From the NCBI GenBank assembly GCA_963682175.1, contig OY821791.1, positions 24,025,826 through 24,089,825 on the forward strand: a stretch of DNA of 64,000 bases, read 5' to 3'. The position numbers and the translations under genes are program-made. Shown piece after piece: positions 10,118 through 64,000 of the stretch (within the stretch, counting starts at the first letter, position 1; each line of letters opens with the position of its first letter). Source of the stretch: Triglochin maritima. Lineage: Eukaryota; Streptophyta; Magnoliopsida; Alismatales; Juncaginaceae. The notes below the pieces were generated by a model. The model did no database searches. It had not been told where the DNA came from and saw nothing but the letters and a program-made list of their open reading frames with translations.

Positions 10118-10123
10118 AGTTTT

Positions 10124-10140: not shown

Positions 10141-11248
10141 AGGTGCTCTGTCCAGACTCTGGTTTGGATGATTCGAGTGGTTTTACTCTTTTGTTTTTAG
10201 TTTTTGTTTGTTTCAGGGATATCTCGACATCCATGGGAGGCACCAGGAGAAATTCGGAGAAGAGGGCAACTATTTTGACCGCCAATCAGCGGTCTGGGAC
10301 AACCAATTGGTGGCCTGGTGAGCTTCTTTTGCTCCACATTTTCTTATGGTTGCTTTTTATTTCAATCTAGCGGTCTGGGAGCTCAGTTATGCATGTTGTG
10401 ACTTGTAGTTCTCTCCTAGATCAATCAATCCCCCTTTTTAAGACAACTTGGACCATAAAACTCAAAGCAAAAGATTAGACTAATTGCCATCTAGGTCATG
10501 CATCACGTGTAGACCTCGCGTGCACATTGTCTTTCAATTGCTTTAAATTCCTGTTGTCAATTGCTGGCGTGAGGTACGTGCACCCATTCTCTCATTCATG
10601 CATGGTTAGAGCATGCATTAGTTAGTAAGGTGCATTGTAACAAGAGTGAGGAGTGCTTGTTCGGTGAGTTGCCTAAGATTTCAAAACATTTAAGTGGCAT
10701 CACTTATAGTCTTCAAAGATAAGGTGGGGGATTTCATCACCCCTCCCTTAGCCCCAAAAAGCACACTCTAGTAAAGCCTTAATCTAAAGCAAGTAGACAT
10801 TGGCACTAGGACTCGGGCGCATTAGGAGAGTGATCCGGTCACGACCGTCAGGGCCTGATTGGTGTCGCCCACTTTGTCGATAGTAGGAGAGACGCGATCT
10901 CCGGATCTTGGGTCACTGGCTTGGCTCTATGGTCTTCGTCGTAGGGAGGTGAGGCGTGTTGAGGTCGTGTGACCTCGTAGTTAGGCATCGTCTAGGTGTA
11001 AGTAGTTTTAGTGACCATAGGCTGCTTGAGCCATGTTTGCTAGACTAGGCTTCTACCCTCACCCTTTACCCACGCTAGTTTAGGGATTCTTCCGTTCTCC
11101 TCTGAGTCATCTTCTTCTCACCTACTTCTACGTTCTAGTTTCCTCCCGTTTACACTCTTTGTTAGCGTTTTAGGGTCGAGTCGATCACTTTTTTGCAAGC
11201 TTGGCCTCGTGGTGGTGAGAGTGGTCGACTCGAGAGTTCTTTGGCGAG
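10141..11248 (+). other. Ath-1 untranslated leader
   Basis: No ORF of note. Segments are homologous to the leaders of Ath-2 to Ath-4, for example the GTCCAGAC...GATTCGAG block just after the primer site and the CTAGACGACGCC-like block near 10980. It holds the palindrome pair at 10277-10315. Start of the coding region is set by the ATG at 11249. Confidence 0.7.
10277..10315. promoter_or_regulatory. Leader palindrome pair of Ath-1
   Basis: GACCGCCAATCAGCGGTC (10277-10294) and GACAACCAATTGGTGGCC (10298-10315). They start 21 bp apart and lie 137 nt after the primer site. Confidence 0.75.
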
Positions 11249-14123: not shown

Positions 14124-15531
14124 TGATTGACATCATATCATGGATATATTTGTGTATTATATCCTATATTTTTAACCTAAGCAATGCTACGTAACGAGTT
14201 TTTTGTTTATGTTTGAGGAATAAAACAAGTGAGAAGAAGAGACACAAAAAGGACTTAACAGGAAGGAAAAGGACTGAGTTGCAAGACTTATGGACTGAGG
14301 TGCAAGAGAGAAGGATCCGGATGTAAAACCAAAAGGACTAATAAGGAAATCAAGAAGCTCCACACCATTATGAGGAGTATTTTGGCAATTAGATCCGGGC
14401 CTAACCATCAACAACTAAATCGGGTTCATCAAACATCGAGAAATCATACCAGAACCGAGCCACCAAACTCCAGACGCGATCACACATATATAGACCGCCA
14501 ATCAGCTATCCATATGTGTCCAAATGCCACATGCTTTGGTCGGGTGGTGGATTATGTTGTTTTATGTCCATTTATAGTATGCAAATTGTCTCATACCGAG
14601 GGATTGTCCCGAATTACCTTTTTCCATGCCTATAAATAGAACTCTTCCTCTCCTTTTGTATTCATCCATTGGTTGGTGGTATTCTCTCTACTTGGAGTAA
14701 GTCTTGGAGAAAAACTCAAGGTGGAGAAGAATGCTACCTATAATGTGAGTCCTGTAAATAAAATAATTCTTCATAGTTTGTTTTAATGTTGTCCTCTCTT
14801 TTCAATTCTTGTATGCTTAGTTTAATTTCATTCTTTTCTTAATGAGTAGTGAGTAGTTCCATTCCCATTTGGTGTGGAGGTAATGTAGAATATGTGATAG
14901 TTATGAGTTATTTTATTTATGTCATTTCATATGTTTAATATAGATCTATACTTGTCACATGCTTAAACTTGTATTAGATGTGATAATGTCCACACTAGGT
15001 ACTTATCTCATGCTAGCTTTAGAGTTTATCTTGTTGCTTGTTATGATTTTATGTGAATGACTTGTTATGTATGGACCCATGTTTGGTGCACATTTACATG
15101 AATGATATAGGTTTTATGTAGGATTGATTGATGCTCTAATGGCCACATTAGGTACTTATTGCATGCTTGAGAATCTAAAATCAACCTCAACTTTATGTGA
15201 GATATGCATGTTCATGGTTTGCCATGTAGTGTTGTGTATCCTACACTTAGATTCTACACTAGAGTCTACTTGTACGCCATACAAACTACACTTGTTCCTA
15301 ATTAAAAAGAAGACCCACTCACACACATACCTACACACCTCCACTCCATGAGGGTCTAGTTTTATTGTTTGCTCTTTCGTACTTTAGTTTAGTGTAATTA
15401 CAACCTCTTCCCCCTATTTTTCCCACTTACCTTCGAACAAACCAGAGTCGACACACCTCCCTGTGAATCGACCCGTACTTGCCCGTCTGTACTGGCGGTC
15501 GTGCATTTGCCGTATTAAAATGAACATATCA
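14124..15531 (+). repeat. Ath-1 3' LTR
   Basis: 1408 bp, TGATTGACATC to AACATATCA. It keeps the U3 segment missing from the 5' LTR. TATA box at 14630-14639. Confidence 0.9.
14482..14519. promoter_or_regulatory. U3 palindrome of Ath-1 3' LTR
   Basis: GACCGCCAATCAGCTATC (14493-14510), a decayed dyad, inside a longer hairpin with arms ACACATAT and ATATGTGT. It lies about 120 bp upstream of the TATA box. Confidence 0.6.
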
Positions 15532-15755
15532 ACTTGCTCACGAAGGTGAGATTAATGCTTCCATTTTTGCAACGAAATTTAATTACTCTAACTCGTTTTA
15601 ATTAGTGCCCAGGGAGTATATCAAAGTTTTATTTGTTTGAAATTTATAATGGAATGGTAATTTATGGACTCGAAATTGAAACTTTTAGAGGCCTAATAAT
15701 CAAATTTTATATCTATTTTTACATTTAGATTGTTTCTCTTGATGTGTAGAAAATT
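15532..15755 (+). other. CACTA-2 sequence upstream of the transposase
   Basis: Starts with the second ACTTG duplication of Ath-1. AT-rich, probably promoter or 5' UTR or intron of the transposase gene; no clear signal. Confidence 0.4.
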
Positions 15756-16289: not shown

Positions 16290-17669
16290 TGTTGAACGTT
16301 TTAATTAAACCGCAAGTGCACGGCGCGTTGAAGAGGTGGCAAATACGGGTCGTCCACAGGGAGGTGAGCAGCGCCTCGTTTGCACAAAATCAAGTGGCAA
16401 AAATAGGGAAGAGAGTTTTATTATCCTACTCTACGCTACACTACACTACGAAGTACGAAATGCGAAAGAAAGCAACTAACGATGAACTACCAAACTAAAC
16501 TAAGAACTAAATAAGTGCTCGAATTGAGAAATAGGAAACCCCTAATGGGTGAAGTGAGTGCACACATGCAAAGAGATGGGTGTTGAACACATTCTTTAAG
16601 CACAAATGAAGGTGGTGTTATCATGCATAGGAAATGTCTACATGTTATGGCAAAACCTATCAATCCATTCACCAACCTAGTTGATTAACATTTACATATA
16701 CAAGTTGTTTATTTCAGAACCTAAACAAGCATGAGAGGTGTCGAATCATTTTGGCAAAACTCATCAAGTTATAAATTCTATCATAAACAAGCAAGCATAC
16801 ATTCATGTTTTATCAACACATTGTAAATAAAGCATTCATTCCATTCTCTAATGCATGTATGAACATCAACTCCACCCCCCAAAGGGGATGAAACTACTCA
16901 CTACACATTAGACTAGTTATTAAACTAAGCAAGGAAAACATATTAACTAAGTTACTAAAACTAAAGAAATGAAATTAAACAAAGTAAAACAAGCAACATA
17001 ATAAAGAAAATTTTATTAAAATGACTCACAATTCAAGTAGAATCCTCCTACTTTAGTGTGTGCTTCAAGGCCTCACTTCTAGTAGGAAGAATAGCCACTC
17101 AAAATGTGAAGTGATTACAATAAAAGGTGAAGAGTTATATTTATAGCCAAAGAAAAAGGCAATCCGGGACAATCCCCCGATGTGGGACTAAACAAATACC
17201 ACAAATAGAATAAACATCCTCTATTACATGTGCTAGCGAAATTTGAGCGGATCCAGAAGGATCCATACCGCCAATTAGCAGTCCCAGACCGCCAATTGGC
17301 GGTCCATAAGATCTGAATCTGGTTGGAATTCGTTATGGGCTTTTCTGGTTTTCTTTGTCGGTCTTGGATGCATCTACTTCGCTTGTTGGAGCTCCGACCC
17401 GAATAGAATTGCCAAAATACTCCCCATGATGGTGTGGAGTATTTTTGTTTGCTCATTGGTCCTTCGATTTTTCATTCAGGTCCTTTGATCTTGCATCTTA
17501 GTCCTTGAGTCTTTCAACTCAGTCCTTTTTCCTTCTTTTGGGTCCTTTTATGCTTCTTCTCTTCAAACCTCTTTATTTCTAAAATTCAAACATAAACTCG
17601 TCACGTAGCATTGTTTAGGTGAAAGATAATGGATAAGATGCAAATATAAGCATGAAATGATGTCAATCA
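16290..17669 (-). repeat. Ath-2 3' LTR
   Basis: 1380 bp. On the minus strand it runs from TGATTGACATC to GTTCAACA. TATA box near 17135-17146 and a palindrome pair at 17266-17304. Confidence 0.88.
17266..17304. promoter_or_regulatory. U3 palindrome pair of Ath-2
   Basis: TACCGCCAATTAGCAGTC (17266-17283, decayed) and GACCGCCAATTGGCGGTC (17287-17304, a perfect 18-bp palindrome). They are 21 bp apart and 120-170 bp upstream of the TATA box. Confidence 0.85.
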
Positions 17670-21532: not shown

Positions 21533-22689
21533 TTAACCCGGACTGTGTGCGACACGAGAGGAGGAAGGCGTCGAGAAGTCGACCACCAAAGCAGGGTTGA
21601 CAACGCTCCTCGTAAAACAACCACTCTCGTCTCGTGCCCACGAAAGAATGCACAAAGGAGCACACACACAAACCAAAACTTTTTTTAATGAAGAATGTGT
21701 GTGGAGGAGAAGACGGGGGAACACAGGAAAGAAAGAAGGACTCAGGAGAGAAGGGAAGAAATCCTTATTCTACGGCAGATGGGTACAGGTAGAAGCACAC
21801 AAGCAAAAAAGGCTCAAACAATCCTAAGGTCGCTCTAGGTCCTTACAGCTAGATGACGCCTAACTGCGAGGTCACACGGTCTCACCTCCCTACAACGAGG
21901 ACCACAAAGCCCAGCAAGTGAGCCAAGATCCGGAGATCTCGTCTCTCCTAGTATCGACATAGTGGGCAACGCCGATCAGGCCATGACCGTCGTCACTGGA
22001 TCACTCTCCTAATACGTCCGAGATCCTTAGAGCCAATGTCTACTTGATTTTAAAAATTAGGCTCTTGATTAGTGTGGTTTGTGGGGTGAAGGAAAGGGTG
22101 ATGGAATCCCCCACCTTATCTTTTATGGGACAACCCCTCCTTAGTAGCATTTTGAAGTCTTAATCTAACAATCAACTCTCCAAACAAACGCTCAAGTCAC
22201 ACCTTTTTCAATGCACTTCCTACTAACTAATGCATGTTCATACGAAATGCATGAATGAGAGTAGAAGGTGTGTACCTCACTCCAGCACTCAGCAACTGAA
22301 AATAAAACTAAAATAAAAGACAATCTACATACCTATGTCACATACATGATGCATGACCTAAACAAGAAAGAATGCCTAATCTTTTGCTTTGGGTTTTAGG
22401 GTACAAGTTGCTTAAAGGAAGTTGATTATTAATCTGGGAGCAATCTAAGAGTCAAAACATGCAAAATTGAGTCCCAAATTCCTAAATGAATTATGGAAAC
22501 AACACAAAGAAAGGAGAAGGCAAACAGATCTCACCAGACTGTTGATTGGCGGTCCAAATTGCCCAGGTTGCCTCCCAATTTCTCCAGTTGCCTCCCCTTG
22601 CCACTCCAAGTCTCCTGAAACAAAGAAAAACTACAAAACACAAATTAAATCCACTCGAATCATCCAAACAAGAGTCTGGAATGGCACCT
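21533..22689 (-). other. Ath-2 untranslated leader
   Basis: No ORF. Conserved blocks shared with Ath-1, -3 and -4 include CTAGATGACGCCTAACTGCG near 21850 and the CATTGGCTC-like stretch near 22030. One palindrome at 22537-22554. Confidence 0.7.
22537..22554. promoter_or_regulatory. Leader palindrome of Ath-2
   Basis: GACTGTTGATTGGCGGTC, one decayed dyad 136 nt after the primer site. The second dyad position is not recognisable. Confidence 0.6.
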
Positions 22690-22706: not shown

Positions 22707-22712
22707 AAAATT

Positions 22713-23548
22713 TGTTGAACGTTTTAATTAAACCACAAGTACACGGCGGTGTTGAAGCGGTAACAAATACGGGTCGTCCACAGGGAGGTGAGCAGCCTCT
22801 CGTTTGCACGAAATCAAGTGGCAAAAATAGGGAAGTGAGTTTGATTATCCTACTCTACGCTACACTACGCTACGAAGTACGAAATGCGAAAGAAAGCAAC
22901 AAACGATGAACTACCAAACTAAACTAAGAACTAAGTAAGTGCTGGAATTGAGAAATAGAAAACCCCTAATGAGTGCACACATGCAAAGAGGTGGGTGTGG
23001 AACACATTCTTTAAGCACAAATGAAGGTGGTGATATCATGCATAGGAAGTGTCTAAATGTTATGACAAAACCTATTAATCCATTCACCAACCTAGTTGAT
23101 TAACATTTACATATAATAGTTGTTTATTTCAGAACCTAAACAAGCATGAGAGGTGTCTAATCATTTTGGCAAAACTCATCAAGTTATAAATTCTATCCTA
23201 AACAAGCAAGCATACATTCATGTTTTATCAACACATTGTAAATAAAACATTCATTCCATTCTCTAATGCATGTATGAACATCAACTCCACCCCCCAAAGG
23301 GGATGGAACTACTCACTACACATTAGACTAATTACTAAACTAAGCAAAGAAAGCATATTAACTAAGCTACTAAAACTAATGAAATGAAATTAAACAAAGT
23401 AAAACAAGCAACATGAAACAAAACAACATAATAAAGAAAATTTAATTAAAATGACTCACAATTCAAGTAGCATCCTCCTACTTTAGTGTGTGCTTCAAGG
23501 CCTCACTTCTAGTAGGAAGAATAGCCACTCAAAATGTGAAGTGATTAC
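22713..23548 (-). repeat. Ath-2 5' LTR, partial (split by Cop-2)
   Basis: 836 bp matching 16290-17120 of the 3' LTR. It ends at GTGATTAC, where the 3' LTR continues with AATAAAAGG. Cop-2 entered at this point (probable target ATTAC), just before the TATA box of this LTR, so its promoter is separated from the element. Confidence 0.88.
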
Positions 23549-29200: not shown

Positions 29201-30746
29201 TGATTAATCGTTTTATATTTAACCGCAAGTGCACGGCCGCGTTGGAGCGGTGGCAAATACGGGTCGTCCACTGGGAGGTGTGTCGACACTTGGTTTGTTC
29301 GAAGGCGAGAGGTAAAAGGAAGGGAAGAAAGATGTATTGATTACACTAAACTACACTAAGATGCAAATGGAAATGAAAAAGAAGCAAGAAAAACTAAACC
29401 CCAAAGGGGGTAGAGAAATGATGTGAACATAAAGAAGTGTGTGTGTGTGTGTGTTCATTAAGCATCTCACAACATGTAGTGCATGAAATCATAAAACTAC
29501 ATCCAACTTTGCCTCAACATGAATTAAGATAAGACTACATCATTAAAACATACAAGACAATAATTGGAATGAAGCTAAATGAACTCAAGTATAAAGACTA
29601 GACCCTACTATGCCTCCACATGAATTAAGATAAGACTACATCATTAAAACATACAAGACATTAGCTAAGGTAAAGGCAACAAGAGCACATACACTACAAA
29701 TTGTGTTTCCAATATTAATTCCTATCCATATCCTAACCTTATCATTCCCCATAAAATAGATCCACTAAGGAAAGCATAAGCTAAGCTTCATTCAAGAGCA
29801 TTAGCATATCAAAGATAAGAGTGGAGACCCATTAGATGGTTATGGAAATCATATAAAGCTCAAGGGATAAAGATAACACACACTTAATACACTACATGAT
29901 TATATCACATATTTCTCCACCCCCCAAATGGGGATGAAACTACTCACTACTCATTACACTATCTATATTAACAAAAGAAAGCATAATACTGAAATGAAAC
30001 TATACTAATCAAGCAAGAAATATTAAAGAAGCATAAAGCAAAACAAGCAACAAAGCAAACACATAAAAGGAAATCAACTAAGCAAGAATTAACAAGGTAA
30101 AGAAAACATCTATTATTAACTCACTCAAATTACAAGCAGCCCTTCCTCCACCAGAGTTTTGCTTCAAGGCTTCACTCTTAGTAGGGAAGATGCCACCAAA
30201 GAGAGAGATGGATACAATGGGAGGTGAAGAGTTCTATTTATAAGCATGGAGAAAGCTAATCCGGGACAATCCCCCGATGGGACTAAACCAATACCAAAAA
30301 TAGCCTAAACACATGATAATACAAGTCCAGGAGCGAGCTTAGCAGAGTTGGGCTCATCCAGACCACCAATTGGCGGCCTATAAGGCCCAGATCTGTCTGG
30401 GTTTTGTGTTGGGCTTCTCTGGAAGCATTTCTTGGTCTTTGATGCATCTACTTGGTTTGTTGGAGCTCCGACCCGAATCAAATTGCCAAAACACTCCCCA
30501 TGATGGTGTGGAGTTTCCTGTTTTGCTCTTAGGTCCTTCGGTCTTACGATCAGGCCCTTCTCCCTTGCATCTTAGTCCCCAGGTCTCACAATTAAGTCCT
30601 TTTTCCTGCTTTTGGGTCCTTTCATGACTCTTCTCTTCAAACCTCTTTATTCCTGAAAACTAAACATAAAACTCGTTACGTAGCATTGCTTAGGTGTAAG
30701 ATAATGGATATAAGACACAAATATAAGCATGAAATGATGTCAATCA
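29201..30746 (-). repeat. Ath-3 3' LTR
   Basis: 1546 bp. Contains a GT repeat near 29440, the TATA box at 30234-30243 and one U3 palindrome. Confidence 0.92.
30361..30378. promoter_or_regulatory. U3 palindrome of Ath-3 3' LTR
   Basis: GACCACCAATTGGCGGCC. Only one dyad is present, whereas the 5' LTR has two. Confidence 0.8.
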
Positions 30747-38373: not shown

Positions 38374-38378
38374 ACAGT

Positions 38379-38571
38379 TGTAACGTCCCGTCCCCGAGTC
38401 CGCATCGAACCCGGGTTCCGGTCCGTCACCCATGTGCCCACTGGCCCACAACACCCACCTATTGCCACAAAACTTAAGTTGGTAAGTGTTATGGTAGTGG
38501 GCTCATGTCTTTATATCCCACCCCAACATTCTCATGTTAAGCAATGTGGGACTAAACTTGGGGGTTTTACA
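38379..38571 (-). repeat. TRIM LTR copy 1
   Basis: 193 bp, TGTAACGTCCC to GGTTTTACA. It contains the TAGTCCCACA-type motif common in plant LTRs and a TATAAA on the minus strand. Confidence 0.85.
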
Positions 38572-38721
38572 ACCTACCCCACTTGAACACCTGACGTCCT
38601 CGTCAGGGTCAAGCCACTCAGCCACCAGGCGTTGCGTTGTGGGATTCTAGAGGTGGCTCCCACCCTTTAGGTGTAGCACTTAGTTCCCACAATTTCGGTT
38701 GGTTCAGGCTCTGATACCATC
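38572..38721 (-). other. TRIM internal segment 1 (purine tract and primer site)
   Basis: About 150 bp. The minus strand has TGGTATCAGAGC (38708-38719, initiator tRNA-Met type) two bases from LTR copy 2, and a purine tract CAAGTGGGGTAGG next to LTR copy 1. This is the minimal cis set of a TRIM; there is no ORF. Confidence 0.85.
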
Positions 38722-38914
38722 TGTAACGTCCCGTCCCCGAGTCCGCATCGAACCCGGGTTCCGGTCCGTCACCCATGTGCCCACTGGCTCACAACACCAA
38801 CCTATTGCCACAAAACTTAAGTTGGTAAGTGTTATGGTAGTGGGCTCATGTCTTTATATCCCACCCCAACATTCTCATGTTAAGCAATGTGGGACTAAAC
38901 TTGGGGGGTTTACA
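38722..38914 (-). repeat. TRIM LTR copy 2
   Basis: 193 bp, nearly identical to copies 1 and 3, shared by two internal segments. Confidence 0.85.
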
Positions 38915-39060
38915 ACCTACCCCACTTGAACACCTGACGTCCTCGTCAGGGTCAAGTCACTCAGTCACCAGGCGTTGTGGGATTCTAGAGGTGGCTCCCA
39001 CCCTTTTAGGTGTAGCACTTAGTTCCCACAATTCCGGTTGGTTCAGGCTCTGATACCATA
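38915..39060 (-). other. TRIM internal segment 2
   Basis: Same content as segment 1, about 5 bp shorter, with the primer site at 39047-39058. Confidence 0.85.
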
Positions 39061-39253
39061 TGTAACGTCCCGTCCCCGAGTCCGCATCGAACCCGGGTTC
39101 CGGTCCGTCACCCATGTGCCCACTGGCCCACAACACCCAACTATTGCCACAAAACTTAAGTTGGTAAGTGTTATGGTAGTGGGATCATGTCTTTATATCC
39201 CACCCCAACATTCTCATGTTAAGCAATGTGGGACTAAACTTGGGGGTTTTACA
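39061..39253 (-). repeat. TRIM LTR copy 3
   Basis: 193 bp, ending TTTTACA directly before the TAAGC duplication. Confidence 0.85.
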
Positions 39254-39305
39254 TAAGCACTCTCTCGAGTCGAGCGCTCTCACCAGAACGAGCCCAACCT
39301 CGCAT
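39254..39305 (-). pseudogene. Ath-3 gag start, separated fragment
   Basis: ATG at 39305 and the first codons, matching Ath-4 MRGWARSGESARLERV. The composite insertion separates this from the rest of gag at 35385. Confidence 0.75.
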
Positions 39306-40344
39306 AAAATGCTCGAATCGACTCTAAACGACATACAACAGAAGGTGTACTAGAGGAGGAGACTATACGTAGAGAATAGATGAGGAGAGGACTCAGGTGA
39401 GGAGGGAAGAATCCCTAGAGCTAGCGTGGGTAGAGGGATCAGGAAGAAGCCTAACTAGCAAGCACGACTCAAACAATGTAAGGCAATGGGTCCTTAGGCT
39501 AGACGACGCCTAACTTCGAGGTCACTAGCCTCAACACGCCTCACCTCCCTACAACGAGGACCACAATGCCCAGAAAGTGATACCAGATCCGGAGATCCAG
39601 TACCTCCTACTATCGATAAGGTAGGCAACGCCGATCAGGTCATGACGGTCTCAACTAGAATACTCTCCCAGTGCGCCCGCAATCCTTAGGGCTAATGTCT
39701 ACTTGCTTTTAGTTAAGGCTTTATTAAGAGTGATTTTTGGGGCTAAGGAAAGGGTGATGATATCCCCCACCTTATCTTTTATGGGATAACCCCACCATAG
39801 TTGTGATTTGATCCTAGATCTAGCAATCAATCGCTCCAATCAAACGCTCTCTCACTCTTGTCCTGATGCAATTCCTACTAACTAATGCATGGGCATACGA
39901 GATGCATGAATGAGTGTAGGAAATGCGTACCTCACGCCAGCACTCAACAACTGAAAATAAAGCTAAAAGAAAAGACAACTATATGCCTAAGTCAATACAT
40001 GATGCGTGACCTAAACAAATAAGAACGTCTAGTCTTTTGCTTTGGATTTTAGGGCCAAGTTGATTAATGGGGGAGTGATTAATGATCTGGGAGCAAACCA
40101 GAAGTCAAAGCATGCAAAATAGGGCTCCCAGATAACAAAAATTACAGAACTAACTACCAGCAAAAATTTGAGAGCACGAATCCCTCACCAGGTCGCCAAT
40201 TGGCGGTCCTTTTGAAGCTTTTGTCCCTCAAACTTGTTCAGTAGCCTCCCCTTGATACTATGGTTCCCTGAAACTAAGACAAACTGAAAACAAAAAATTA
40301 GAAACCCCTCGAATCGCCCAAACCAAGGTCTGGACAGAGCACCT
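39306..40344 (-). other. Ath-3 untranslated leader
   Basis: Very similar to the Ath-4 leader (50674-51735). No ORF. Palindrome at 40191-40208. Confidence 0.75.
40191..40208. promoter_or_regulatory. Leader palindrome of Ath-3
   Basis: GGTCGCCAATTGGCGGTC, one dyad, 137 nt after the primer site. Confidence 0.8.
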
Positions 40345-40361: not shown

Positions 40362-41400
40362 AACACTTGATTGATCGTTTTATATTTAACCGCAAGTGCA
40401 CGGCCGCGTTGGAGCGGTGGCAAATACGGGTCGTCCACTGGGAGGTGTGTCAACACTTGGTTTGTTCGAAGGCGAGAGGTAAAAGGAAGGGAAGAAAGAT
40501 GTATTGATTACACTAAACTACACTAAGATGCAAATGGAAATGAAAAAGAAGCAAGAAAAACTAAACCCCAAAGGGGGTAGAGAAATGATGTGAACATAAA
40601 GAAGTGTGTGTGTGTGCGTGTTCATTAAGCATCTCACAACATGTAGTGCATGAAATCATAAAACTACATCCAACTTTGCCTCAACATGAATTAAGATAAG
40701 ACTACATCATTAAAACATACAAGACAATAATTGGAATGAAGCTAAATGAACTCAAGTATAAAGACTAGACCCTAGTATGCCTCCACATGAATTAAGATAA
40801 GGCTACATCATTAAAACATACAAGACATTAGCTAAGGTAAAGGCAACAAGAGCACATACACTACAAATTGTGTTTCCAATATTAATTCCTATCCATATCC
40901 TAACCTTATCATTCCCCATAAAATAGATCCACTAATCAAAGCATAAGCTAAGCTTCATTCAAGAGCATTAGCATATCAAAGATAAGAGTGGAGACCCATT
41001 AGATGGTTATGGAAATCATATAAAGCTCAAGGGATAAAGATAACACACACTTAATACACTACATGATTATATCACATATTTCTCCACCCCCCAAATGGGG
41101 ATGGAACTACTCACTACTCATTACACTATCTATATTAACAAAAGCAAGCATAATACTGAAATGAAACTATACTAATCAAGCAAGAAATATTAAAGAAGCA
41201 TAAAGCAAAACAGGCAACAAAGCAAACACATAAAAGGAAATCAACTAAGCAAGAATTAACAAGCTAAAGAAAACATCTAATATTAACTCACTCAAATTAC
41301 AAGCAGCTCTTCCTCCACCAGAGTTTTGCTTCAAGGCTTCACTCTTAGTAGGGAAGATGCCACCAAAGAGAGAGATGGATACAATGGGAGGTGAAGAGTT

Positions 41401-41410
41401 CTATTTATAA
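41401..41410 (-). promoter_or_regulatory. TATA box of Ath-3 5' LTR
   Basis: TTATAAATAG on the minus strand, 120-167 bp downstream of the palindrome pair. Confidence 0.6.
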
Positions 41411-41529
41411 GCATGGAAAAAGCTAATCCGGGACAATCCCCCGATGTGGGACTAAACCAATACCAAAAATAGCCTAAACACATGATAATACAAGTCCAGG
41501 AGCGAGCTTAGCAGAGTTGGGCTCATCCA

Positions 41530-41568
41530 AACCGCCAATTGGCGGTTCCAGACCGCCAATTGGCGGCC
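41530..41568. promoter_or_regulatory. U3 palindrome pair of Ath-3 5' LTR
   Basis: AACCGCCAATTGGCGGTT (41530-41547, perfect) and GACCGCCAATTGGCGGCC (41551-41568). They start 21 bp apart. Confidence 0.9.
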
Positions 41569-41934
41569 TATAAGGCCAAGATCTGTCTGGGTATTGTGCT
41601 GGGCTTCTCTGGAAGCATTTCTTGGTCTTCGAGGCATCTACTTGGTTTGTTGGAGCTCCGACCCGAATCGAATTGCCAAAACACTCCCCATGATGGTGTG
41701 GAGTTTCCTGTTTTGCTCTTAGGTCCTTCGGTCTTACGATCAGGTCCTTCTCCCTTGCATCTTAGTCCCCAGGTCTCACAATTAAGTCTTTTTTTCTGCT
41801 TTTGGGTCCTTTCATGGCTCTTCTCTTCGAACCTCTTTATTCCTGAAAACTAAACATAAAACTCGTTACGTAGCATTTCTTAGGTGTAAGATAATGGATA
41901 TAAGATACAAATATAAGCATGAAATGATGTCAAT

Positions 41935-43504
41935 TGATTGATCGTTTTATTTTAACCGCAAGTGCACGACCGCGTTGAAGCGGTGGCAAATACGGGTCGT
42001 CCACTGGGAGGTGTGTCGACACTTGGTTTGTGCGAAGGCGAGAGGTAAAGAAAAGGAAGAAGGATGTATTACACTAAACTACACTACAATGCTAAACTAG
42101 AATGCAAAAGGAAATGAAGATAAGCAATAAAACTAAACCCCAAAGGGGGTAGAGAAATGATGTGAACATAAATATGTGTTTGTGTGTGTGTGTTCAATTA
42201 AGCTCCTCACAACATGTAGTGCATGAAATCATAAAACTACATCCAACTTTGCCTCCACATGAATTAAGATAGGACTACATCATTAAAACATACAAGACAT
42301 TAATTGGAATGAAGCCAAATGAACTCAAGTATAAAGACTAGACCCTACGATGCCTCCACATGAATTAAGATAAGACTACATCATTAAAACATACAAGACA
42401 TTAGCTAAGGTAAAGGCAACAAGAGTACATACACTACAAATTGTGTTTCCAATATTAACTTCATCCATATCCTAACCTTATCATTCCCCATAAAATAGGT
42501 CCACTAATCAAAGCATAAGCTAAGCTTCATTCAAAAGCATTAGCATATCAAAGATAAGAGTGAAAACCCATTAGATGGTTATGGAAATCATATAAAGCTC
42601 AAGGGATAAAGATAACACACACTTAATACACTACATGATTATATCACATATTTCTCCACCCCCCAAATGGGGATGGAACTACTCACACATATTTAAACTA
42701 ACTACTCTAACAAAAGAAAGCATTAATACTGAATTGAAATTAATCTAAGCAAGCAAGAAATATTAAAGAAACTAAAAGAACATGAGACTAAAGAAACATG
42801 CAAGACATTGAAATTAACTAAGCAATGTAAAAACTAAAGCAAACAACAATTAACTACAAAACTTCTATTATTACTCACTCCAAATTACAAGCAGCCCTTC
42901 CTCCACCAGAGTTTTGCTTCAAGGCTTCACTCTTAGTAGGGAAGAAGGCCACCAAGAGAGAGATGGTTACAATGGGAGGTGAAGAGTTCTATTTATAAGC
43001 ATGGAAAAAACTAATCCGGGACAATCCCCCGATGTGGGACTAAACCAATACCAAAAATAGACTAAGCACACATTAATACAAGTCCAGGACAAAATTAGGT
43101 GGATCTGGGCCAATCCAGACCGCCAATTGGCGGCCTATATGATCCAGATCCATCTGGATTTGTTTGTGGGCCTTCCTTGTTGTGTGTCTTGGTCTTGGAT
43201 GCATCTGGTTGGTTTGTTGGAGCTCCGACCCGAATCGAATTGGCAAAATACTCCCCATGATGGTGTGGAGTATTCTGTTTTGCTCTTAGGTCCTTCTGTC
43301 TTGCAATCAGGTCCTTCTTCCTTGCATCTTGGTCCCCAGATCTCACAATTCAGTCCATTTTCCCAGCTTTTGGGTCCTTTTATGCTTCACCTCTTCAAAC
43401 CTATTTATTCCTGAAAACTAAACATAAAACTCGTGACATAGCATTGTTTAGGTGAAAGATAATGGATATAAGATACAAATATAAGCATGAAATGATGTCA
43501 ATCA
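41935..43504 (-). repeat. Ath-4 3' LTR
   Basis: 1570 bp. TATA box 42989-42998, one U3 palindrome. Confidence 0.93.
43118..43135. promoter_or_regulatory. U3 palindrome of Ath-4 3' LTR
   Basis: GACCGCCAATTGGCGGCC, one dyad only. Confidence 0.85.
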
Positions 43505-46909: not shown

Positions 46910-48640
46910 CTAAAAAATGGCATCCTTAGCCAACAACGCGGTGAGAGGTCGAGCGAATTTGCTAAAATCCCGAATGAACCGCCGATAGAATCCAGCATGC
47001 CCCAAAAAGGCGCGGATATCCTTCACATTACGTGGCGGTGGGAGATTAGCAATGATACCCACTTTGGCGGGATCGACCTCAATTCCCCTACTTGAGACCA
47101 CATGTGCAAGTACAATCCCTCGCTTCACCATGAAGTGACATTTCTCCCAATTGAGCGCGAGGTTCTTCTCACGGCATCGCTTGAGGACAAGGCTCAAGTG
47201 ATGAAGACACTCATCAAAGGAAGCGCCAAATATGGAAAAGTCGTCCATGAAGATCTCAAGGAAACGCTCAACCATATCGGAGAAGATGCTGATCATACAC
47301 CTCTGAAACGTTGCCGGCGCATTGCATAACCCAAAGGGCATGCGACGGTAGGGAAACGTGCCAAAGGGACAAGTGAATGTGGTTTTCTCTTGGTCCTCGG
47401 GGGCGATGGGAATTTGGTTGTAACCGGAGTATCCATCAAGAAAACAATAGTACTCATGTCCGGCCAACCTTTCCAACATCTGATCAATGAATGGCAACGG
47501 GAAATGATCTTTCCGCGTTGCCACATTGAGCTTGCGATAATCAATGCAAACTCGCCAGCCAGTTTGCAGGCGTGTCGGGATAAGCTCATTATGCTCATTC
47601 TCCACAACCGTCACGCCTGACTTCTTGGGAACCACATGGACAAGACTCACCCACGAACTATCAGAGATAGGATAGATTATGCCATGATCCAAGCACTTAA
47701 GAATCTCCTTTCGGACGGCTTCCTTCAGTACAGGATTCAATCTCCGTTGTGGGTCCCTGCGGGGCCGAGAATCCTCTTCCATGTGGATCCGATGCTGAAC
47801 AATACCAGGGCTAATTCCCTTGATATCCTTCAAGGACCACCCGATTGCCTCTTTGTTTTCAAAGAGTACTCTTTTGAGGGCAACCTCTTGATCTTTTTCA
47901 AGATCAGAAGCAATAATGAGTGGCAAGGTCTCATTATCCCCTAAAAAGATGTACTTTAGGTTATCGGGGAGCGGTTTAAGCTCGACCAGAGGTGGATCCT
48001 TGTCGGATTCCGAGTTACTTTCAAGTGGCTCAAGGGCCACAGGGTAAGAGGAGCAAGCACCCAGATGTGCCTCCTCGTCCAGAGATATGCTGGCGGATTC
48101 CTCAAGATCCTCTTCACTCGCAACCTGATCATTAGGCACCTCAATAATATGTCGATGTGAGTCGAACATGCCTAATGAGTCAGGCTCATCCGTGTCCTCG
48201 ATGAAATTGGCTCCGACAGTGTCGTCGAAGAGCCCAGGTTGCTTACCAAGAGTGAAGATGTTGAAATCCGCCGTGAGATTTCCAAAAGACAACCTCATCA
48301 AGCCATTGCGACAATTGATCAAAGCATTAGATGTCGCAAGAAATGGCCTCCCAAGGATCACAAGAATATGTCCTTGTGGGTTGGACACGGGTTCGGTATC
48401 CAAGATGATGAAATCAACTAGAAATACGAACTCACCCACTTTGATAAGGACATCCTCCACACTCCCTCGTGGGATTTTGACGGATCTATCAGCCAACTGG
48501 AGGGTTGTCCTCGTTGGTTTAAGATCGCCTATCCCAAGGTTGACATAGACTGAGTAAGGCAGGAGATTCACAGATGCCCCAAATCCAATAGAGCTTGAGA
48601 GATGGTCACATTCCCAATCATGCAAGAGACAGTTGGACAA
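46910..48640 (-). pseudogene. Ath-4 protease C-terminal part and reverse transcriptase
   Basis: Open 576 codons in one frame. It begins inside the protease (SVNLLPYSVY, LQLADRSV, ILGRPFLATSNALINCRNG), passes the pre-RT segment (VALEPLESNSESDKDPP, DNETLPLIIASDL, KGISPGIVQHRIHMEE), and holds the RT: HVVPKKSG, GWRVCIDYRKLN (47530-47570), FLDGYSGYNQI, MPFGLCNAPATFQR, the catalytic box FMDD (47240-47252) and FLGHAGFYRRFI. These motifs are typical of Athila RT. The 5' side is out of frame with gag by a 1-bp loss at the protease active site (about 48575), and TAG at 46910 ends it. Confidence 0.92.
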
Positions 48641-48810
48641 CCAGGGTCCTTGTACTTGACATTCATGGGTTGTGTCAATATGGAGCTCACATTGGCGACC
48701 AAGAAGGCCTTTTTAGGCACATTTGTTTTTCTCTTGGTGGTGCAAAGGTCCTTGAGGAACTTGGCATACGGTGGCATTTGTTGAACAACGTCCAACAACG
48801 GGATGTTCAC
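48568..48810 (-). pseudogene. Ath-4 protease N-terminal part with frameshift at active site
   Basis: MNIPLLDVVQQMPPYAKFLK, KRKTNVPKKAF, KYKDPGC and ALLDLG. One G is missing compared with Ath-3 directly after the DLG codons, so the frame runs into TGA. In phase with gag, separated from it by TAG at 48850. Confidence 0.88.
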
Positions 48811-50673: not shown

Positions 50674-51735
50674 GAAATGCTCGACTCGACTCTAAACGAC
50701 ACACAACAGAAGGTGTACTAGAGGAGGAGACTAAACGTAGAGAATAGATGAGGAGAGGACTCAGATGAGGAGGGAAGAATCCCTAGAGCTAGCGTGGGTA
50801 GTGGGATCAGGAAGAAGCCTAACTAGCAAGCACGGCTCAAACAATGTAAGGCAATGGGTCCTTAGGCTAGACGACGCCTAACTTCGAGGTCACTAGCCTC
50901 GACACGTCTCACCTCCCTACAACGAGGACCACAATGCCCAGCAAGTGATACCAGATCCGGAGATCCAGTACCTCCTACTATCGACAACGTAGGCAACGCC
51001 GATCAGGTCATGACGGTCTCAACTAGATTACTCTCCTAGTGCGCCCGCAATCCTAGGGCCAATGTCTACTTGCTTTTAGTTAAGGCTTTATTAAGAGTGG
51101 TTTTTGGGGCCAAGGAAAGGGTGATGAAATCCCCCACCTTATCTTTTATGGGACAGCCCCTCCTTAGTAGCGATTTGATCCTAGATCTAGCAATCAATCG
51201 CTCCAATCAAACGCTCTCTCACTCTTGTCCTGATGCAATTCCTACTAACTAATGCATGGGCATACGAGATGCATGAATGAGTGTAGGAATTGCGTACCTC
51301 ACGCCAGCACTAAACAACTGAAAATAAAGGTAAAAGAAAAGACAACTATATGCCTAACTCAATGCATGATGCGTGACCTAAACAAGTAAGAACGTCTAGT
51401 CTTTTGCTTTGGATTTTAGGGCCAAGTTGATTAATGGGGGAGTGATTAATGATATGGGAGCAAACCAGAAGTCATAGCATGCAAAATAAGGCTCCCAGAT
51501 AACACAAATTACAGCACTAACTATCAGTAAAAATTTCAAGGCCAGAAACTCTCACCAGGCCGCCAATTGGCGGTCTTCAACCGCTGATTGGCGGTCTGTT
51601 TAGCTCTTCTGTTCCCCAAATTTCTCCAGTAGCCTCCCCTTGTTCTGATGGTTCCCTGAAACTAAGAAAAACTGAAAACAAAAAATTTAAAACCCCTCGA
51701 ATCGTCCAAACCAATGTCTGGACAGAGCACCACCC
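50674..51735 (-). other. Ath-4 untranslated leader
   Basis: No ORF. Nearly collinear with the Ath-3 leader; palindrome pair at 51558-51596. Confidence 0.75.
51558..51596. promoter_or_regulatory. Leader palindrome pair of Ath-4
   Basis: GGCCGCCAATTGGCGGTC (51558-51575) and AACCGCTGATTGGCGGTC (51579-51596). Starts 21 bp apart, 140 nt after the primer site. Confidence 0.88.
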
Positions 51736-51752
51736 ATGCGGCAACGGCGCCA
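51736..51752 (-). other. Ath-4 primer-binding site (tRNA-Asp type)
   Basis: Minus strand TGGCGCCGTTGCCGCAT; the first 14 bases match the consensus and the last three have changed. Confidence 0.88.
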
Positions 51753-51995
51753 AAAACTTGATTGATCGTTTTATTTTAACCGCAAGTGCACGGCCGCGTT
51801 GAAGCGGTGGCAAATACGGGTCGTCCACTGGGAGGTGTGTCGACACTTGGTTTGTGCGAAGGCGAGAGGTAAAGAAAAGGAAGAAGGATGTATTACACTA
51901 AACTACACTACAATGCTAAACTAGAATGCAAAAGGAAATGAAGATAAGCAATAAAACTAAACCCCAAAGGGGGTAGAGAAATGATGTGAACATAA

Positions 51996-52027
<32 letters not shown>

Positions 52028-52821
52028 TCAATTAAGCTCCTCACAACATGTAGTGCATGAAATCATAAAACTACATCCAACTTTGCCTCCACATGAATTA
52101 AGATAGGACTACATCATTAAAACATACAAGACATTAATTGGAATGAAGCTAAATGAACTCAAGTATAAAGACTAGACCCTACTATGCCTCCACATGAATT
52201 AAGATAAGACTACATCATTAAAACATACAAGACATTAGCTAAGGTAAAGGCAACAAGAGTACATACACTACAAATTGTGTTTCCAATATTAACTTCATCC
52301 ATATCCTAACCTTATCATTCCCCATAAAATAGGTCCACTAATCAAAGCATAAGCTAAGCTTCATTCAAGAGCATTAGCATATCAAAGATAAGAGTGAAAA
52401 CCCATTAGATGGTTATGGAAATCATATAAAGCTCAAGGGATAAAGATAACACACACTTAATACACTACATGATTATATCACATATTTCTCCACCCCCAAA
52501 TGGGGATGGAACTACTCACACATATTTAAACTAACTACTCTAATAAAAGAAAGCATTAATACTGAATTGAAATTAATCTAAGCAAGCAAGAAATATTAAA
52601 GAAACTAAAAGAACATGAGACTAAAGAAACATGCAAGACATTGAAATTAACTAAGCAATGTAAAAACTAAAGCAAACAACAATTAACTACAAAACTTCTA
52701 TTATTACTCACTCCAAATTACAAGCAGCCCTTCCTCCACCAGAGTTTTGCTTCAAGGCTTCACTCTTAGTAGGGAAGAAGGCCACCAAGAGAGAGATGGT
52801 TACAATGGGAGGTGAAGAGTT

Positions 52822-52831
52822 CTATTTATAA
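52822..52831 (-). promoter_or_regulatory. TATA box of Ath-4 5' LTR
   Basis: TTATAAATAG on the minus strand, 120-158 bp downstream of the palindromes. Confidence 0.6.
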
Positions 52832-52950
52832 GCATGGAAAAAGCTAATCCGGGACAATCCCCCGATGTGGGACTAAACCAATACCAAAAATAGACTAAGC
52901 ACACATTAATACAAGTCCAGGAGAAAATTAGGTGGATCTGGGCCAATCCA

Positions 52951-52989
52951 GACCGCCAATTGGCGGTTCCAGACCGCCAATTGGCGGCC
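52951..52989. promoter_or_regulatory. U3 palindrome pair of Ath-4 5' LTR
   Basis: GACCGCCAATTGGCGGTT (52951-52968) and GACCGCCAATTGGCGGCC (52972-52989), 21 bp apart. Confidence 0.9.
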
Positions 52990-53365
52990 TATATGATCCA
53001 GATCCGTCTGGATTTGTTTGTGGGCCTTCCTTGTTGTGTCTCTTGGTCTTGGATGCATCTGGTTGGTTTGTTGGAGCTCTGACCCGAATCGAATTGGCAA
53101 AATACTCCCCATGATGGTGTGGAGTATTCTGTTTTGCTCTTAGGTCCTTCTGTCTTGCAATCAGGTCCTTCTTCCTTGCATCTTGGTCCCCAGATCTCAC
53201 AATTCAGTCCTTTTTCCCAGCTTTTGGGTCCTTTTATGCTTCACCTCTTCAAACCTATTTATTCCTGAAAACTAAACATAAAACTCGTGACATAGCATTG
53301 TTTAGGTGAAAGATAATGGATATAAGATACAAATATAAGCATGAAATGATGTCAATCATCAATCA

Positions 53366-61488: not shown

Positions 61489-61506
61489 GGCCGCTGATTG
61501 GCGGTC
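61489..61506. promoter_or_regulatory. Leader palindrome of Ath-6
   Basis: GGCCGCTGATTGGCGGTC, 136 nt after the primer site. A half-dyad TTGGCGGTC (61477-61485) stands where the second dyad, 21 bp away, should be; the deletion junction cuts it. Confidence 0.8.
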
Positions 61507-62658
61507 CAAACTGCCTAGCTTTCCTCCAAATTTTTCCAGATGCCTCTCCTTTCGACTCCAAGTATCCTGAAACAAAGAAAAACTACAAAACAAAAATTAA
61601 ATCCACTCGAATCGTCCAAACAAGAGTCTGGACTGACACCTCCCCAGCAACGGTGCCAAAAACTTGTTGAACGTTTTAATTAAACCACAAGTGCACGGCC
61701 GAGATGAAGCGGTGGCAAGTACGGGTCATCCTCAGGGAGGTGAGCATCCTCTTGTTTATCCGAAATCAAGTGGCAAAAATTGGGGGAGAAAGATTGATTA
61801 TGTTACTTTACACTAAACTACGCTAAGAAGTATGAAATGCGAACGAAAGAAACAAACAATGAAATGACAACTAAGCTAAGAACAAAAGACGAATGCTGGA
61901 ATACAGAAATGGGAAAACCTCTAAGGGGTGGAGTGAGTGCACACAAGCAAAGGGGTGGGTGTTGAACACATTCTTTAAGCACAAATAAAGGTGGTGTTAT
62001 CATGCATCGGAAGTGTCTAAATGTTGTGGTAAAACCTATCAATCGATTAACCAACTTAGTTGATTAACATTTACATATGCAAGATGTTTATTTCAGAATC
62101 GAAACAAGCATGAGAGGTGTCTAATCATTTTGGCAAAACTCATCAAGTTATAAATTCTATCCTAAACAAGCAAGCATACATTCATGTTTTATCAACACAT
62201 TGGAAATAAAGCATTCAATCCATTCTCATTTGCATGTATGTACATCTACTCCACCCCCCAAATGGGATGGAACTACTCACTAAACATTACACTAATTATT
62301 AAACTAAACAAAGAAAGCATAATAACTAAGCTAATAAAACTAATGAAATGAGATTAAGCAAAGCAAAACAAGAAACATAAAACAAACAACATAATAAAGA
62401 AAACATGTATTAAAATGACTCACATTAAAAGTAGCATCCTCCTACTTTAGTGTGTGCTTCAAGGACTCACTCTAGTAGGAAGAATAGCCACTTAAAATAT
62501 GGAGTGATTACAATGGAAGGCGAAGAGTTCTATTTATAGCCATGGAAAAAGGCAAACTGGGACAATCTCCCGATGTTGGACTAAACAGATACCAAAAATA
62601 GCCTAAACATCCTCTAATACATGTGCTGGAGAAATTTTAGCGGATTTGGGCCAAAATG

Positions 62659-62676
62659 GACAGCCAATTGGCGGTC
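62659..62676. promoter_or_regulatory. U3 palindrome of Ath-6
   Basis: GACAGCCAATTGGCGGTC, one dyad about 120 bp upstream of the TATA box. Confidence 0.8.
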
Positions 62677-62745
62677 TAAAAAGTCCGGATCCATCTGGAA
62701 TTTGTGTTGGGCTTTGCTTAGTGTATTTGGTGGTCTTGGATGCAT

Positions 62746-64000
62746 TGATTGATCGTTTTATATTTAACCGCAAGTGCACGGCCGCGTTGAAGCGGTGGCA
62801 AATACGGGTCGTCCACTGGGAGGTGTGTCGACACTTGGTTTGTGCGAAGGCGAGAGGTAAAGAAAGGGAAGAAAGGTTGGTTACACTAAACTACACTAAG
62901 ATGCAAATGGAAATGGAGATAAGCAATAAACTAAGCCCCAAAGGGGGTAGAGAAATAATGTGAACATAAAGAAGTGTGTGTGTGTGTTCATTAAGCTCCT
63001 CACAACATGTAGTACATGAAATCATAAAACTACATCCAACTTTGCCTCTACATGAATTAAGATAAGACTACATCATTAAAACATACAAGACAATAATTGG
63101 AATGAAGCTACATGAACTCAAGTATAAAGACTATACCCTACTATGCCTCTACATGAATTAAGATTTCACTACATCATTAAAACATACAAGACATTAGCTA
63201 AGGTAAAGGCAACAAGAGTACATACACTACAAATTGTGTTTCCAATATTAACTTCATCCATATCCTAACCTTATCATTCCCCATAAAATAGGTCCACTAA
63301 TCAAAGCATAAGCTAAGCTTCATGCAAGAGCATTAGCATATCAAAGATAAGAGTGGAGACCCATTAGATGGTTATAGAAATCATATAAAGCTCAAGGGAT
63401 AAAAATAACACACACTTAATACACTACATAATTATATCACATATTTCTCCACCCCCCAAATGGGGATGGAACTACTCACTACTCATTACACTAACTATAT
63501 TAGCAAAAGAAAGCATAATACAGAAATGAAAGTTAACTAAGAAGGCAAGAAGCATTAAAGAAACATAAAAGGAAAGGAAAGACTAAACAAACATGCACAA
63601 ATTAAAAGACAAGATTTAAAGAAACTAGAAGAATTATTTTATTAACAAATGACTCACATTGAAGGTAGCATTCTTCTCCACCTTGAGTTTTTGCTTCAAG
63701 GCTCACTCCTTAGTAGAGAAAATGCCACCAAGCAATGGGTAATTACAATGGAAGGTGAAGAGTTCTATTTATAAGCATGGAAAAAGCTAATCGGGGACAA
63801 TCCCCCGATGTGGGACTAAACCAATACCAAAAATAGCCTAAACGAACATTAATACAAGTCCAGGAGAAATTTCGACGGATCCTGAGCAATATGGACCGCC
63901 AATTAGCGGTCCAAAATCTTCGGATCGTATTGGAATTTGTTGTGGGGTTTTCTTTCTAGTATTGTTGGTCTTTGATGCGGTTAATTGACTTGTTGGAGCT
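62746..64000 (-). mobile_element. Ath-7, Athila-like LTR running off the window
   Basis: LTR beginning TGATTGATCGTTTTATATTT on the plus strand, closest to the Ath-3/Ath-4 LTRs. Left target site TGCAT (62741-62745). TATA box at 63765-63774. The 3' LTR end and interior lie beyond 64000; orientation is inferred from the LTR alone. Confidence 0.88.
63894..63911. promoter_or_regulatory. U3 palindrome of Ath-7
   Basis: GACCGCCAATTAGCGGTC, extended by one G/C pair on each side; about 120 bp upstream of the TATA box. Confidence 0.82.

What the first reader, a model, noticed from the sequence alone, without database searches (positions are those of the whole stretch)
51558..52989. Paired 18-bp palindromes, phased at 21 bp, in both U3 and leader of Athila-like elements
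Seen directly: dyads close to GACCGCCAATTGGCGGTC occur in the U3 of Ath-1, -2, -3, -4, -6 and -7 and again in the leaders of Ath-1, -2, -3, -4 and -6. Where paired, starts are always 21 bp apart: 10277/10298, 17266/17287, 41530/41551, 51558/51579, 52951/52972. In U3 they lie about 120-165 bp upstream of the TATA box; in the leader the nearest dyad is 136-140 nt after the primer site in every copy. LTR and leader show no other similarity. 21 bp is two helical turns, which suggests a dimeric DNA-binding factor on one face of the helix. Alternatively the element RNA, which carries leader dyads at its 5' end and U3 dyads at its 3' end, may use them for dimerisation or end-to-end pairing.
Basis: partly seen in the sequence, partly recalled or inferred. 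Interest (0 to 1): 0.9.

Follow-up and report, generated by a model that had tools for sequence, protein, structure and literature searches.

The report
Paired palindromes in plant retrotransposon promoter
A very abundant plant retrotransposon family carries one or two copies of a short palindromic DNA site, 21 letters apart, both upstream of its promoter and just after its replication-priming site; the site changes more slowly than its surroundings and is more likely a landing pad for a host transcription factor than an RNA structure.

Summary
The window holds nested Athila-like Ty3 elements; all 15 near-matches to GACCGCCAATTGGCGGTC lie in their U3 or leader. The unit is a 21-bp tandem repeat (18-bp dyad, 3-bp spacer), 1-2 copies per site. 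In the 1.06-Gb genome it occurs at 68,107 places with up to 2 mismatches (reversed control 3). Of 1,956 exact pairs, 48 of the 50 listed are 21 bp apart. The left half follows the primer site within 125-153 bases at 5,263 places.

Dyads diverge 0.28-0.40 times as fast as flanks. They show no covariation beyond shuffles; leader units degrade mainly in the right half, mostly to A-C mismatches. This disfavours RNA pairing and favours DNA half-sites (ACCGCCAAT). The factor is unidentified.

Also found: the plant snRNA-gene USE lies 32 bp before the TATA box in 7 of 9 window LTRs that have one, and leader dyads end a putative small exon.

Closest precedent: Sirevirus U3 palindromes. New variant of a known kind.

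The parts
51558..51575 (-). E4 leader unit b, PBS-distal (GACCGCCAATTGGCGGCC in element sense)
   Evidence: starts 159 nt after the 18-nt PBS
51579..51596 (-). E4 leader unit a, PBS-proximal (GACCGCCAATCAGCGGTT)
52951..52968 (-). E4 5' LTR U3 unit b
   Evidence: 120 bp from TATA
52972..52989 (-). E4 5' LTR U3 unit a; exact reverse complement of leader unit b
43118..43135 (-). E4 3' LTR U3 unit (single; one 21-bp unit fewer than the 5' LTR)
41530..41547 (-). E3 5' LTR U3 unit b
41551..41568 (-). E3 5' LTR U3 unit a
30361..30378 (-). E3 3' LTR U3 unit (single)
40191..40208 (-). E3 leader unit (b type; unit a deleted)
17266..17283 (-). E2 3' LTR U3 unit b
17287..17304 (-). E2 3' LTR U3 unit a, perfect dyad
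22537..22554 (-). E2 leader unit (single)
10277..10294 (+). E1 leader unit a
10298..10315 (+). E1 leader unit b (decayed)
14493..14510 (+). E1 3' LTR U3 unit (decayed, CAATCA centre)
61489..61506 (-). E5 leader unit a; a partial second unit follows, where homology to other leaders ends
62659..62676 (-). E5 LTR U3 unit
63894..63911 (-). E6 LTR U3 unit
52863..52874 (-). AGTCCCACATCG, match to plant snRNA-gene USE, 32 bp upstream of TATAAATA (E4 5' LTR; also exact at 43030, 41442, 17178, 63806)
   Evidence: consensus RTCCCACATCG seen in PMC4448504
51556..51655 (-). putative small exon of the E4 leader between TTTCAG| and |GTGAG; the dyad array is its 3' end
   Evidence: sequence signals only, no transcript
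51758..53358 (-). E4 5' LTR
   Evidence: orientation from TATA and PBS
41934..43504 (-). E4 3' LTR; E4 lies inside the start of the E3 5' LTR with 5-bp target duplication ATTGA
40368..41934 (-). E3 5' LTR
29201..30746 (-). E3 3' LTR
46910..48712 (-). E4 open frame with reverse transcriptase domain
   Evidence: RVT_1 8.5e-30

Best explanation
The 21-bp unit is a host-factor binding site carried by the element. Two inverted half-sites, ACCGCCAAT and ATTGGCGGT, share the central AATT, and units are stacked 1-2 (rarely 3) times at 21 bp. In U3 the array is a distal activating element. It sits at a nearly fixed 120 bp from the TATA box, upstream of a proximal promoter made of a plant snRNA-type USE and a TATA box. 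In the leader the same half-sites, kept mainly in one orientation, act as an internal copy of the same element about 135 nt after the primer site. SHOWN: presence, tandem period, positions, genome-wide abundance, slower evolution than flanks, lack of covariation. SUGGESTED: better retention of at least one half-site. INFERRED: that a protein binds, that it activates transcription, and that the leader copy works as DNA. The binding family is a guess: E2F/DP-like (TTGGCGG), NF-Y-like (CCAAT) or ERF-like (RCCGCC).
For: Dyad p-distance against flanks of 60 bp each side: U3 0.152 v 0.407 (6 LTRs), 0.100 v 0.344 (5, without decayed E1); leader unit a 0.111 v 0.399 (4), leader unit b 0.148 v 0.371 (3). 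No 18-column flank window was as conserved in three of the tests, 6 of 103 in the fourth; permutation P 0.0001, 0.0003, 0.0007, 0.018. Position: 120 bp to TATA in 7 of 8 window LTRs, in 13 of 20 further LTR records (12 of 19 after removing a duplicate) and 119 in 3 (91-166 was allowed). Genome: 68,107 places v 3 control; 1,956 exact pairs, 48 of 50 listed at 21 bp. At least one CCAAT in 18 of 18 window units, 13.0-13.2 expected, P 0.001-0.007; at least one TTSSCGS in 17 of 18, 13.6-13.8 expected, P 0.02-0.06. At least one CCGCCAAT half in 24 of 34 distinct units, 18.1 expected, P 0.009. Substitutions do not keep pairing. In ten stretches not chosen for dyads (seven at round coordinates, three beside the window) 11 of 11 units lie in U3 or leaders of this kind.
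Against: No factor or binding data. The half-site enrichment is post hoc, modest, and its null ignores relatedness; CCAAT alone in the larger set is 27 of 34 v 23.3 (P 0.09). Ten of 51 units keep no intact CCGCCAAT half. The strict E2F consensus TTTSSCGSS is met by 0 of 18 window units. U3 has few indels upstream of the dyad as well, so the fixed 120 bp is weak evidence by itself. From LTR position 330 to the TATA box, 31 of 158 16-bp windows are at least as conserved as the dyad, mainly near the USE and TATA. Many copies are related by descent, so counts are not independent.
Confidence: 0.55

Rival explanations
1. RNA element: leader palindromes dimerise the genomic RNA, or leader and U3 units pair to bring the RNA ends together, as PAL and CYC5/CYC3 do in Ty1 and DS/PAL6 in Ty3.
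For: Placement just after the PBS and in U3 is like Ty1 CYC5/CYC3 (passages of PMC4974528) and palindromic dimer sites (passages of PMC11381356). E4 U3 unit a and leader unit b pair at 18 of 18 positions. The E4 leader folds better than shuffles, z -3.23. Distinct U3 units have somewhat more G-U than A-C cells (17 v 12, other mismatches 10). RNAalifold draws leader unit a as a 6-bp hairpin.
Against: No covariation beyond chance: paired cells 84.0% observed, 84.0% shuffled; covariation score reached by 130 of 500 shuffles. Matched U3-leader pairing 77 v 75.0 permuted, 12 of 120 as good. Distinct leader units: 25 A-C cells v 3 G-U. E1, E2, E3 leaders fold no better than shuffles. The covariation term of the consensus fold of the whole leader is unfavourable.
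Confidence: 0.15
2. Splicing element: the leader array is the 3' end of a small non-coding exon (79/80 or 100/101 nt) and tunes use of the adjoining 5' splice site, while U3 copies are incidental or serve otherwise.
For: TTTCAG|G acceptor-like site in 13 of 14 leaders; donor-like CTG|GTRAG in 12 of 14, one more GTAAT, one leader cut off before it (one locus is counted twice). Putative exon T content 0.12-0.22 v 0.61-0.76 upstream and 0.41-0.56 downstream; lengths differ by the 21-bp unit.
Against: Does not explain conservation of the same unit in U3; no transcript data; the donor-like motif partly overlaps the spacer TGG, which also follows several U3 units.
Confidence: 0.12
3. Inherited tandem repeat kept similar by slippage or gene conversion, with no function.
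For: Copy number is labile: both elements with two complete LTRs that keep dyads (E3, E4) differ between their LTRs by exactly one unit; spacing of 21 is also just the repeat period.
Against: The unit is conserved as an island between subfamilies whose flanks differ at 34-41% of sites; conversion would have to leave unit-specific differences (a/b, U3/leader) that are shared across elements.
Confidence: 0.13
4. Target of host silencing or chromatin factors rather than an activator.
For: A site in tens of thousands of copies could attract host repression (inference only).
Against: An element would be expected to lose such a site; here it is conserved.
Confidence: 0.05

Closest known systems
Sirevirus repeated motifs (RM), PMC2829016 (section 9 read in full)
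   Same: Short palindromes in U3 upstream of the TATA box, repeated, with a second cluster elsewhere in the element; function unproven.
   Different: Ty1/copia elements, at least 8 copies, CGG-CCG core (in all but one), second cluster upstream of env in those that have env. Here Ty3 elements, 1-2 units per site at 21 bp, CCG-CGG arms around AATT, second cluster in the leader. The paper calls the RM Sirevirus-specific.
Ty1 CYC5/CYC3 and PAL, Ty3 DS/PAL6 RNA sites (PMC4974528, PMC11381356; passages seen)
   Same: Located near the 5' end after the PBS and, for CYC3, at the 3' end; DS and PAL are palindromic.
   Different: No covariation or consistent fold here.
E2F sites amplified by plant transposons (Henaff et al. 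2014; known here only from passages of PMC11656987 and PMC12595863)
   Same: A transcription factor site multiplied by mobile elements.
   Different: Those are mostly in MITEs and Helitrons of Brassicaceae; our half-site ATTGGCGGT meets 7 of 9 positions of TTTSSCGSS (consensus seen in PMC5464667).
Plant snRNA gene promoter, USE + TATA (PMC4448504, PMC5079582, PMC6765143; passages seen)
   Same: Exact RTCCCACATCG and TATA at fixed spacing in the LTR.
   Different: Sits in an LTR retrotransposon here; use of SNAPc untested.
Leader enhancers of copia and Su(Hw) sites of gypsy in Drosophila (recalled; a copia reference title seen)
   Same: Protein-binding sites downstream of the PBS.
   Different: Unrelated sequence and host.

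Membership tests
Athila-like Ty3 LTR retrotransposons | gag, RT, integrase of Ty3 type close to plant elements | tested here: met
   Pfam Retrotrans_gag, RVT_1, Integrase_H2C2, rve; plant RT relatives, e.g. 74% identity over 44% of the query and 65-66% over 93%; no tree built
Athila-like Ty3 LTR retrotransposons | tRNA-Asp type PBS TGGCGCCGTTGCC after the LTR; LTR ends TG..CA, 5-bp target duplication | tested here: met
   duplication seen for E4 only; PBS type from a figure legend in PMC1142308 and recall
Athila-like Ty3 LTR retrotransposons | env-like ORF after pol | not tested
   not examined
Sirevirus RM | Ty1/copia host element | tested here: not met
Sirevirus RM | CGG-CCG palindromic core, 8 or more copies | tested here: not met
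   CCG-CGG arms, 1-2 units per site
Sirevirus RM | palindromes upstream of TATA in the LTR | tested here: met
E2F/DP binding site | TTTSSCGSS | tested here: not met
   0 of 18 window units; the shorter TTSSCGS is present on at least one strand in 17 of 18
NF-Y CCAAT box | intact CCAAT | tested here: met
   18 of 18 window units; 44 of 51 in the larger set; binding untested
ERF-like box (recalled) | RCCGCC | tested here: met
   17 of 18 window units on at least one strand; motif recalled, binding untested
LBD/AS2 site | GCGGCG | tested here: not met
   0 of 18 window units; consensus seen in PMC10118128
Plant snRNA-type promoter | RTCCCACATCG at fixed distance before a TATA box | tested here: met
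   of 9 window LTRs with a TATA box, 5 exact and 2 with 1-2 mismatches at 32 bp; E1 3' LTR has 4 mismatches, E3 3' LTR a shift. 32 bp in 17 of 20 further records, 16 of 19 without a duplicate, but those had been picked with a USE-like site in reach
Plant snRNA-type promoter | SNAPc-dependent transcription | not testable with these tools
   needs plants
Retroelement RNA dimer or cyclisation site | pairing conserved through compensatory change | tested here: not met

The most novel reading that the evidence does not exclude
These Athila-like LTRs use an snRNA-gene type promoter (USE at 32 bp from TATA, read by SNAPc), boosted by a stackable palindromic distal element that the element has also copied into its leader, so that one host factor controls both ends of the transcription unit.
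Probability: 0.25. Interest if true: 0.75.

Novelty: new variant of a known kind. Interest (0 to 1): 0.52.

Why it matters
It gives a specific, testable cis-element for an abundant plant Ty3 lineage, in a genome where the unit occurs at about 68,000 places. If a host factor binds it, such a load of sites could affect that factor's availability across the genome. The USE match would tie LTR transcription to the snRNA machinery. It also suggests that repeated U3 palindromes are not confined to Sireviruses.

Tried and rejected
RNA hairpin, dimer and end-to-end pairing: tested by covariation, matched pairing, folding of four leaders, consensus folding and mismatch types; not supported. A first covariation count used a wrong register and is replaced.

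Relatives outside the genome: viral contigs gave none. Genome contigs gave two plant-like contigs in bacterial assemblies (L001, L002). They match our elements mainly in pol, with a few short stretches elsewhere, and no CCGCCAAT or ATTGGCGG was found in them; whether they include U3 or leader is unclear. Rfam gave no hits at gathering scores. A paper search for GCCAATTGGC listed 16 papers, none with a title about a retrotransposon or such a motif. 'Athila', 'palindrom', 'LTR retrotransposon' and 'leader' together gave two papers. CCCACATCG with 'retrotransposon' gave five, none on LTR promoters by title. LBD sites considered and dropped.

Not achieved: a dyad-blind count of leaders and U3s genome-wide. 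The queries for PBS-GATTCGAG, USE-TATA and dyad-TATA did not complete.

Sampling caveats: 14 of the 24 fetched genome loci (L003-L016) were centred on exact dyads; the centring units were flagged and left out of the counts, but not out. L006 and L016 overlap, so one element is counted twice, and its two exact units, each a seed of the other locus, entered the non-seed set. In one search a unit was called U3 only if a TATA box (up to 1 mismatch) and a USE-like site (up to 3) lay in reach, and leader only if a PBS (up to 3 mismatches) did, so those features are not independent of the choice. The listings are capped and come from the first contigs. An earlier count said 49 of 51 pairs; the correct count of the listing is 48 of 50.

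Full report
WHAT IS THERE. The window lies at G000:C26:24025826-24089825 in a 1.06-Gb genome and is a nest of LTR retrotransposons. Self-comparison and orientation by PBS and TATA give six Athila-like units, my names E1-E6. E1 (+): LTRs 8926-10121 and 14124-15535. E2 (-): 3' LTR 16288-17669, truncated 5' LTR 22709-23548. E3 (-): LTRs 29201-30746 and 40368-41934. E4 (-): LTRs 41934-43504 and 51758-53358. E5 and E6 are partial LTRs at 61663-62745 and 62745-64000. E4 lies two bases inside the 5' LTR of E3 with the 5-bp target duplication ATTGA. Open frames include gag, RT and integrase of Ty3 type, with plant relatives.

THE UNIT. In element sense U3 and leader carry 18-bp dyads; where there are two, a 3-bp spacer separates them, so the array is a tandem repeat of period 21. 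Fifteen matches with up to 3 mismatches were found, against none in 100 shuffles. Eighteen window units were aligned; the partial second unit of the E5 leader was left out. Window U3 units are GACCGCCAATTGGCGGTC with 0-4 changes. Leader unit a is GACCGCCAATCAGCGGTC with 0-2 further changes in the four elements that keep it; leader unit b has C at position 17 in 3 of 3. E3 and E4 have two units in the 5' LTR and one in the 3' LTR, at LTR divergences of 1.9% and 0.8%, so unit number changes fast. The last U3 unit ends 120 bp before TATAAATA in 7 of 8 LTRs (118 in one); the first leader unit starts 134-138 nt after the PBS in 5 of 5.

GENOME-WIDE. GACCGCCAATTGGCGGTC with up to two mismatches occurs at 68,107 places; the reversed control at 3. 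Exact 14-bp cores with 0-30 bp between them: 1,956 places, control 0. Of the 50 places listed, 48 are 21 bp apart (two of them forming one triple array), one 42 with a broken unit between, one 30. Seven spacer variants occur among them. PBS followed by CCGCCAAT after 125-153 bases: 2,625 + 2,638 places, control 0; the listed places (about 100; lengths read from coordinates) all have gaps of 138-143. Twenty-four fetched loci gave 20 LTR and 9 leader records (19 and 8 without a duplicate): last unit to TATA 120 in 13 and 119 in 3 of 20, the rest 95-112; first leader unit 133-136 nt after the PBS in 9 of 9 (121-171 was allowed); 18 of 18 neighbouring unit pairs 21 apart. In ten stretches not chosen for dyads (L017-L023 at round coordinates, L024-L026 beside the window), 11 of 11 units with up to 4 mismatches lie in such a U3 or leader, one unclassified pair being U3 by similarity.

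CONSTRAINT. Between elements the dyad differs at 0.10-0.15 of sites, flanks of 60 bp each side at 0.34-0.41; permutation P 0.0001-0.018. In U3 it is an island; the other conserved block is around the USE and TATA.

DNA OR RNA. Covariation does not exceed shuffles. Leader units have 4 changes in the left core and 28 in the right core (19 units), and the broken pairs of distinct leader units are A-C, not G-U, in the RNA sense (25 v 3, other 1). U3 units change evenly (20 left, 21 right) with 17 G-U, 12 A-C and 10 other cells. What tends to survive is at least one half ACCGCCAAT/ATTGGCGGT: 24 of 34 distinct units against 18.1 expected. This is modest and post hoc, and 10 of 51 units keep neither CCGCCAAT half. 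Points for RNA are the position, the full complementarity of E4 U3 unit a with leader unit b and the stable E4 fold; E1, E2 and E3 do not share that stability. I put protein-DNA recognition at 0.55 and RNA at 0.15. The factor is open: the half-site fits 7 of 9 E2F positions, contains CCAAT and resembles an ERF box (recalled).

SPACING. 21 bp is two helical turns, but it is also the repeat period and is inherited. Spacer letters vary while length does not, which is compatible with phasing but does not prove selection on spacing.

PROMOTER CONTEXT. Of nine window LTRs with a TATA box, AGTCCCACATCG lies exactly 32 bp before it without mismatch in five, with one and two mismatches in two more; E1 3' LTR has four mismatches and E3 3' LTR a 2-bp shift. 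In the fetched loci the gap is 32 in 17 of 20 LTR records (16 of 19 without a duplicate), all picked with a USE-like site in reach. This is the plant snRNA USE, RTCCCACATCG (PMC4448504), part of SNAPc-dependent promoters (PMC6765143; PMC5079582; passages seen). That 32 bp fits the Pol II rather than the Pol III spacing is recalled, not looked up.

LEADER CONTEXT. Leader arrays are followed by a donor-like CTG|GTRAG in 12 of 14 leaders (one more GTAAT, one cut off), and TTTCAG|G lies about 60 nt upstream of the first unit in 13 of 14. Where both are found (12 of 14; 11 of 13 without a duplicate) the T-poor stretch between is 79-80 or 100-101 nt. No transcript was available.

VERDICT. A real, constrained, tandem palindromic cis-element in two places of an abundant plant Ty3 family; probably a host-factor site; closest to Sirevirus repeated motifs but failing their defining core, copy number and superfamily.

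Noticed in passing
17178, 41442, 43030, 52863, 63806 (-): Exact plant snRNA-gene USE (AGTCCCACATCG) 32 bp before the TATA box of the LTRs; near matches at 62571 (-) and 9178 (+).
   Followed up: partly
51556-51655 (-) and equivalent leader positions: Leader dyads lie at the 3' end of a putative small exon between TTTCAG|G and CTG|GTRAG; both signals in 12 of 14 leaders examined, counting one GTAAT and one duplicate locus.
   Followed up: partly
41934: E4 inserted two bases inside the 5' LTR of E3 with a 5-bp target duplication.
   Followed up: yes
30361, 41530-41568, 43118, 52951-52989: E3 and E4 each have two dyad units in the 5' LTR and one in the 3' LTR.
   Followed up: partly
38364-39316 (-): Tandem repeats of about 340 bp with a USE-like AGTCCCACATTG, TATAAAGA and TGGTATCAGAGC, resembling a small terminal-repeat element (recalled) inside E3.
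   Followed up: no
L001, L002: Nearly identical (99.7%) plant-like Athila contigs inside two bacterial genome assemblies, Solirubrobacter and Geminicoccus: likely contamination.
   Followed up: partly
51704-51723 (-): A second, nearly invariant hairpin GTCCAGAC..GTTTGGAC shortly after the PBS in all five leaders; its end pair is broken in E2.
   Followed up: no
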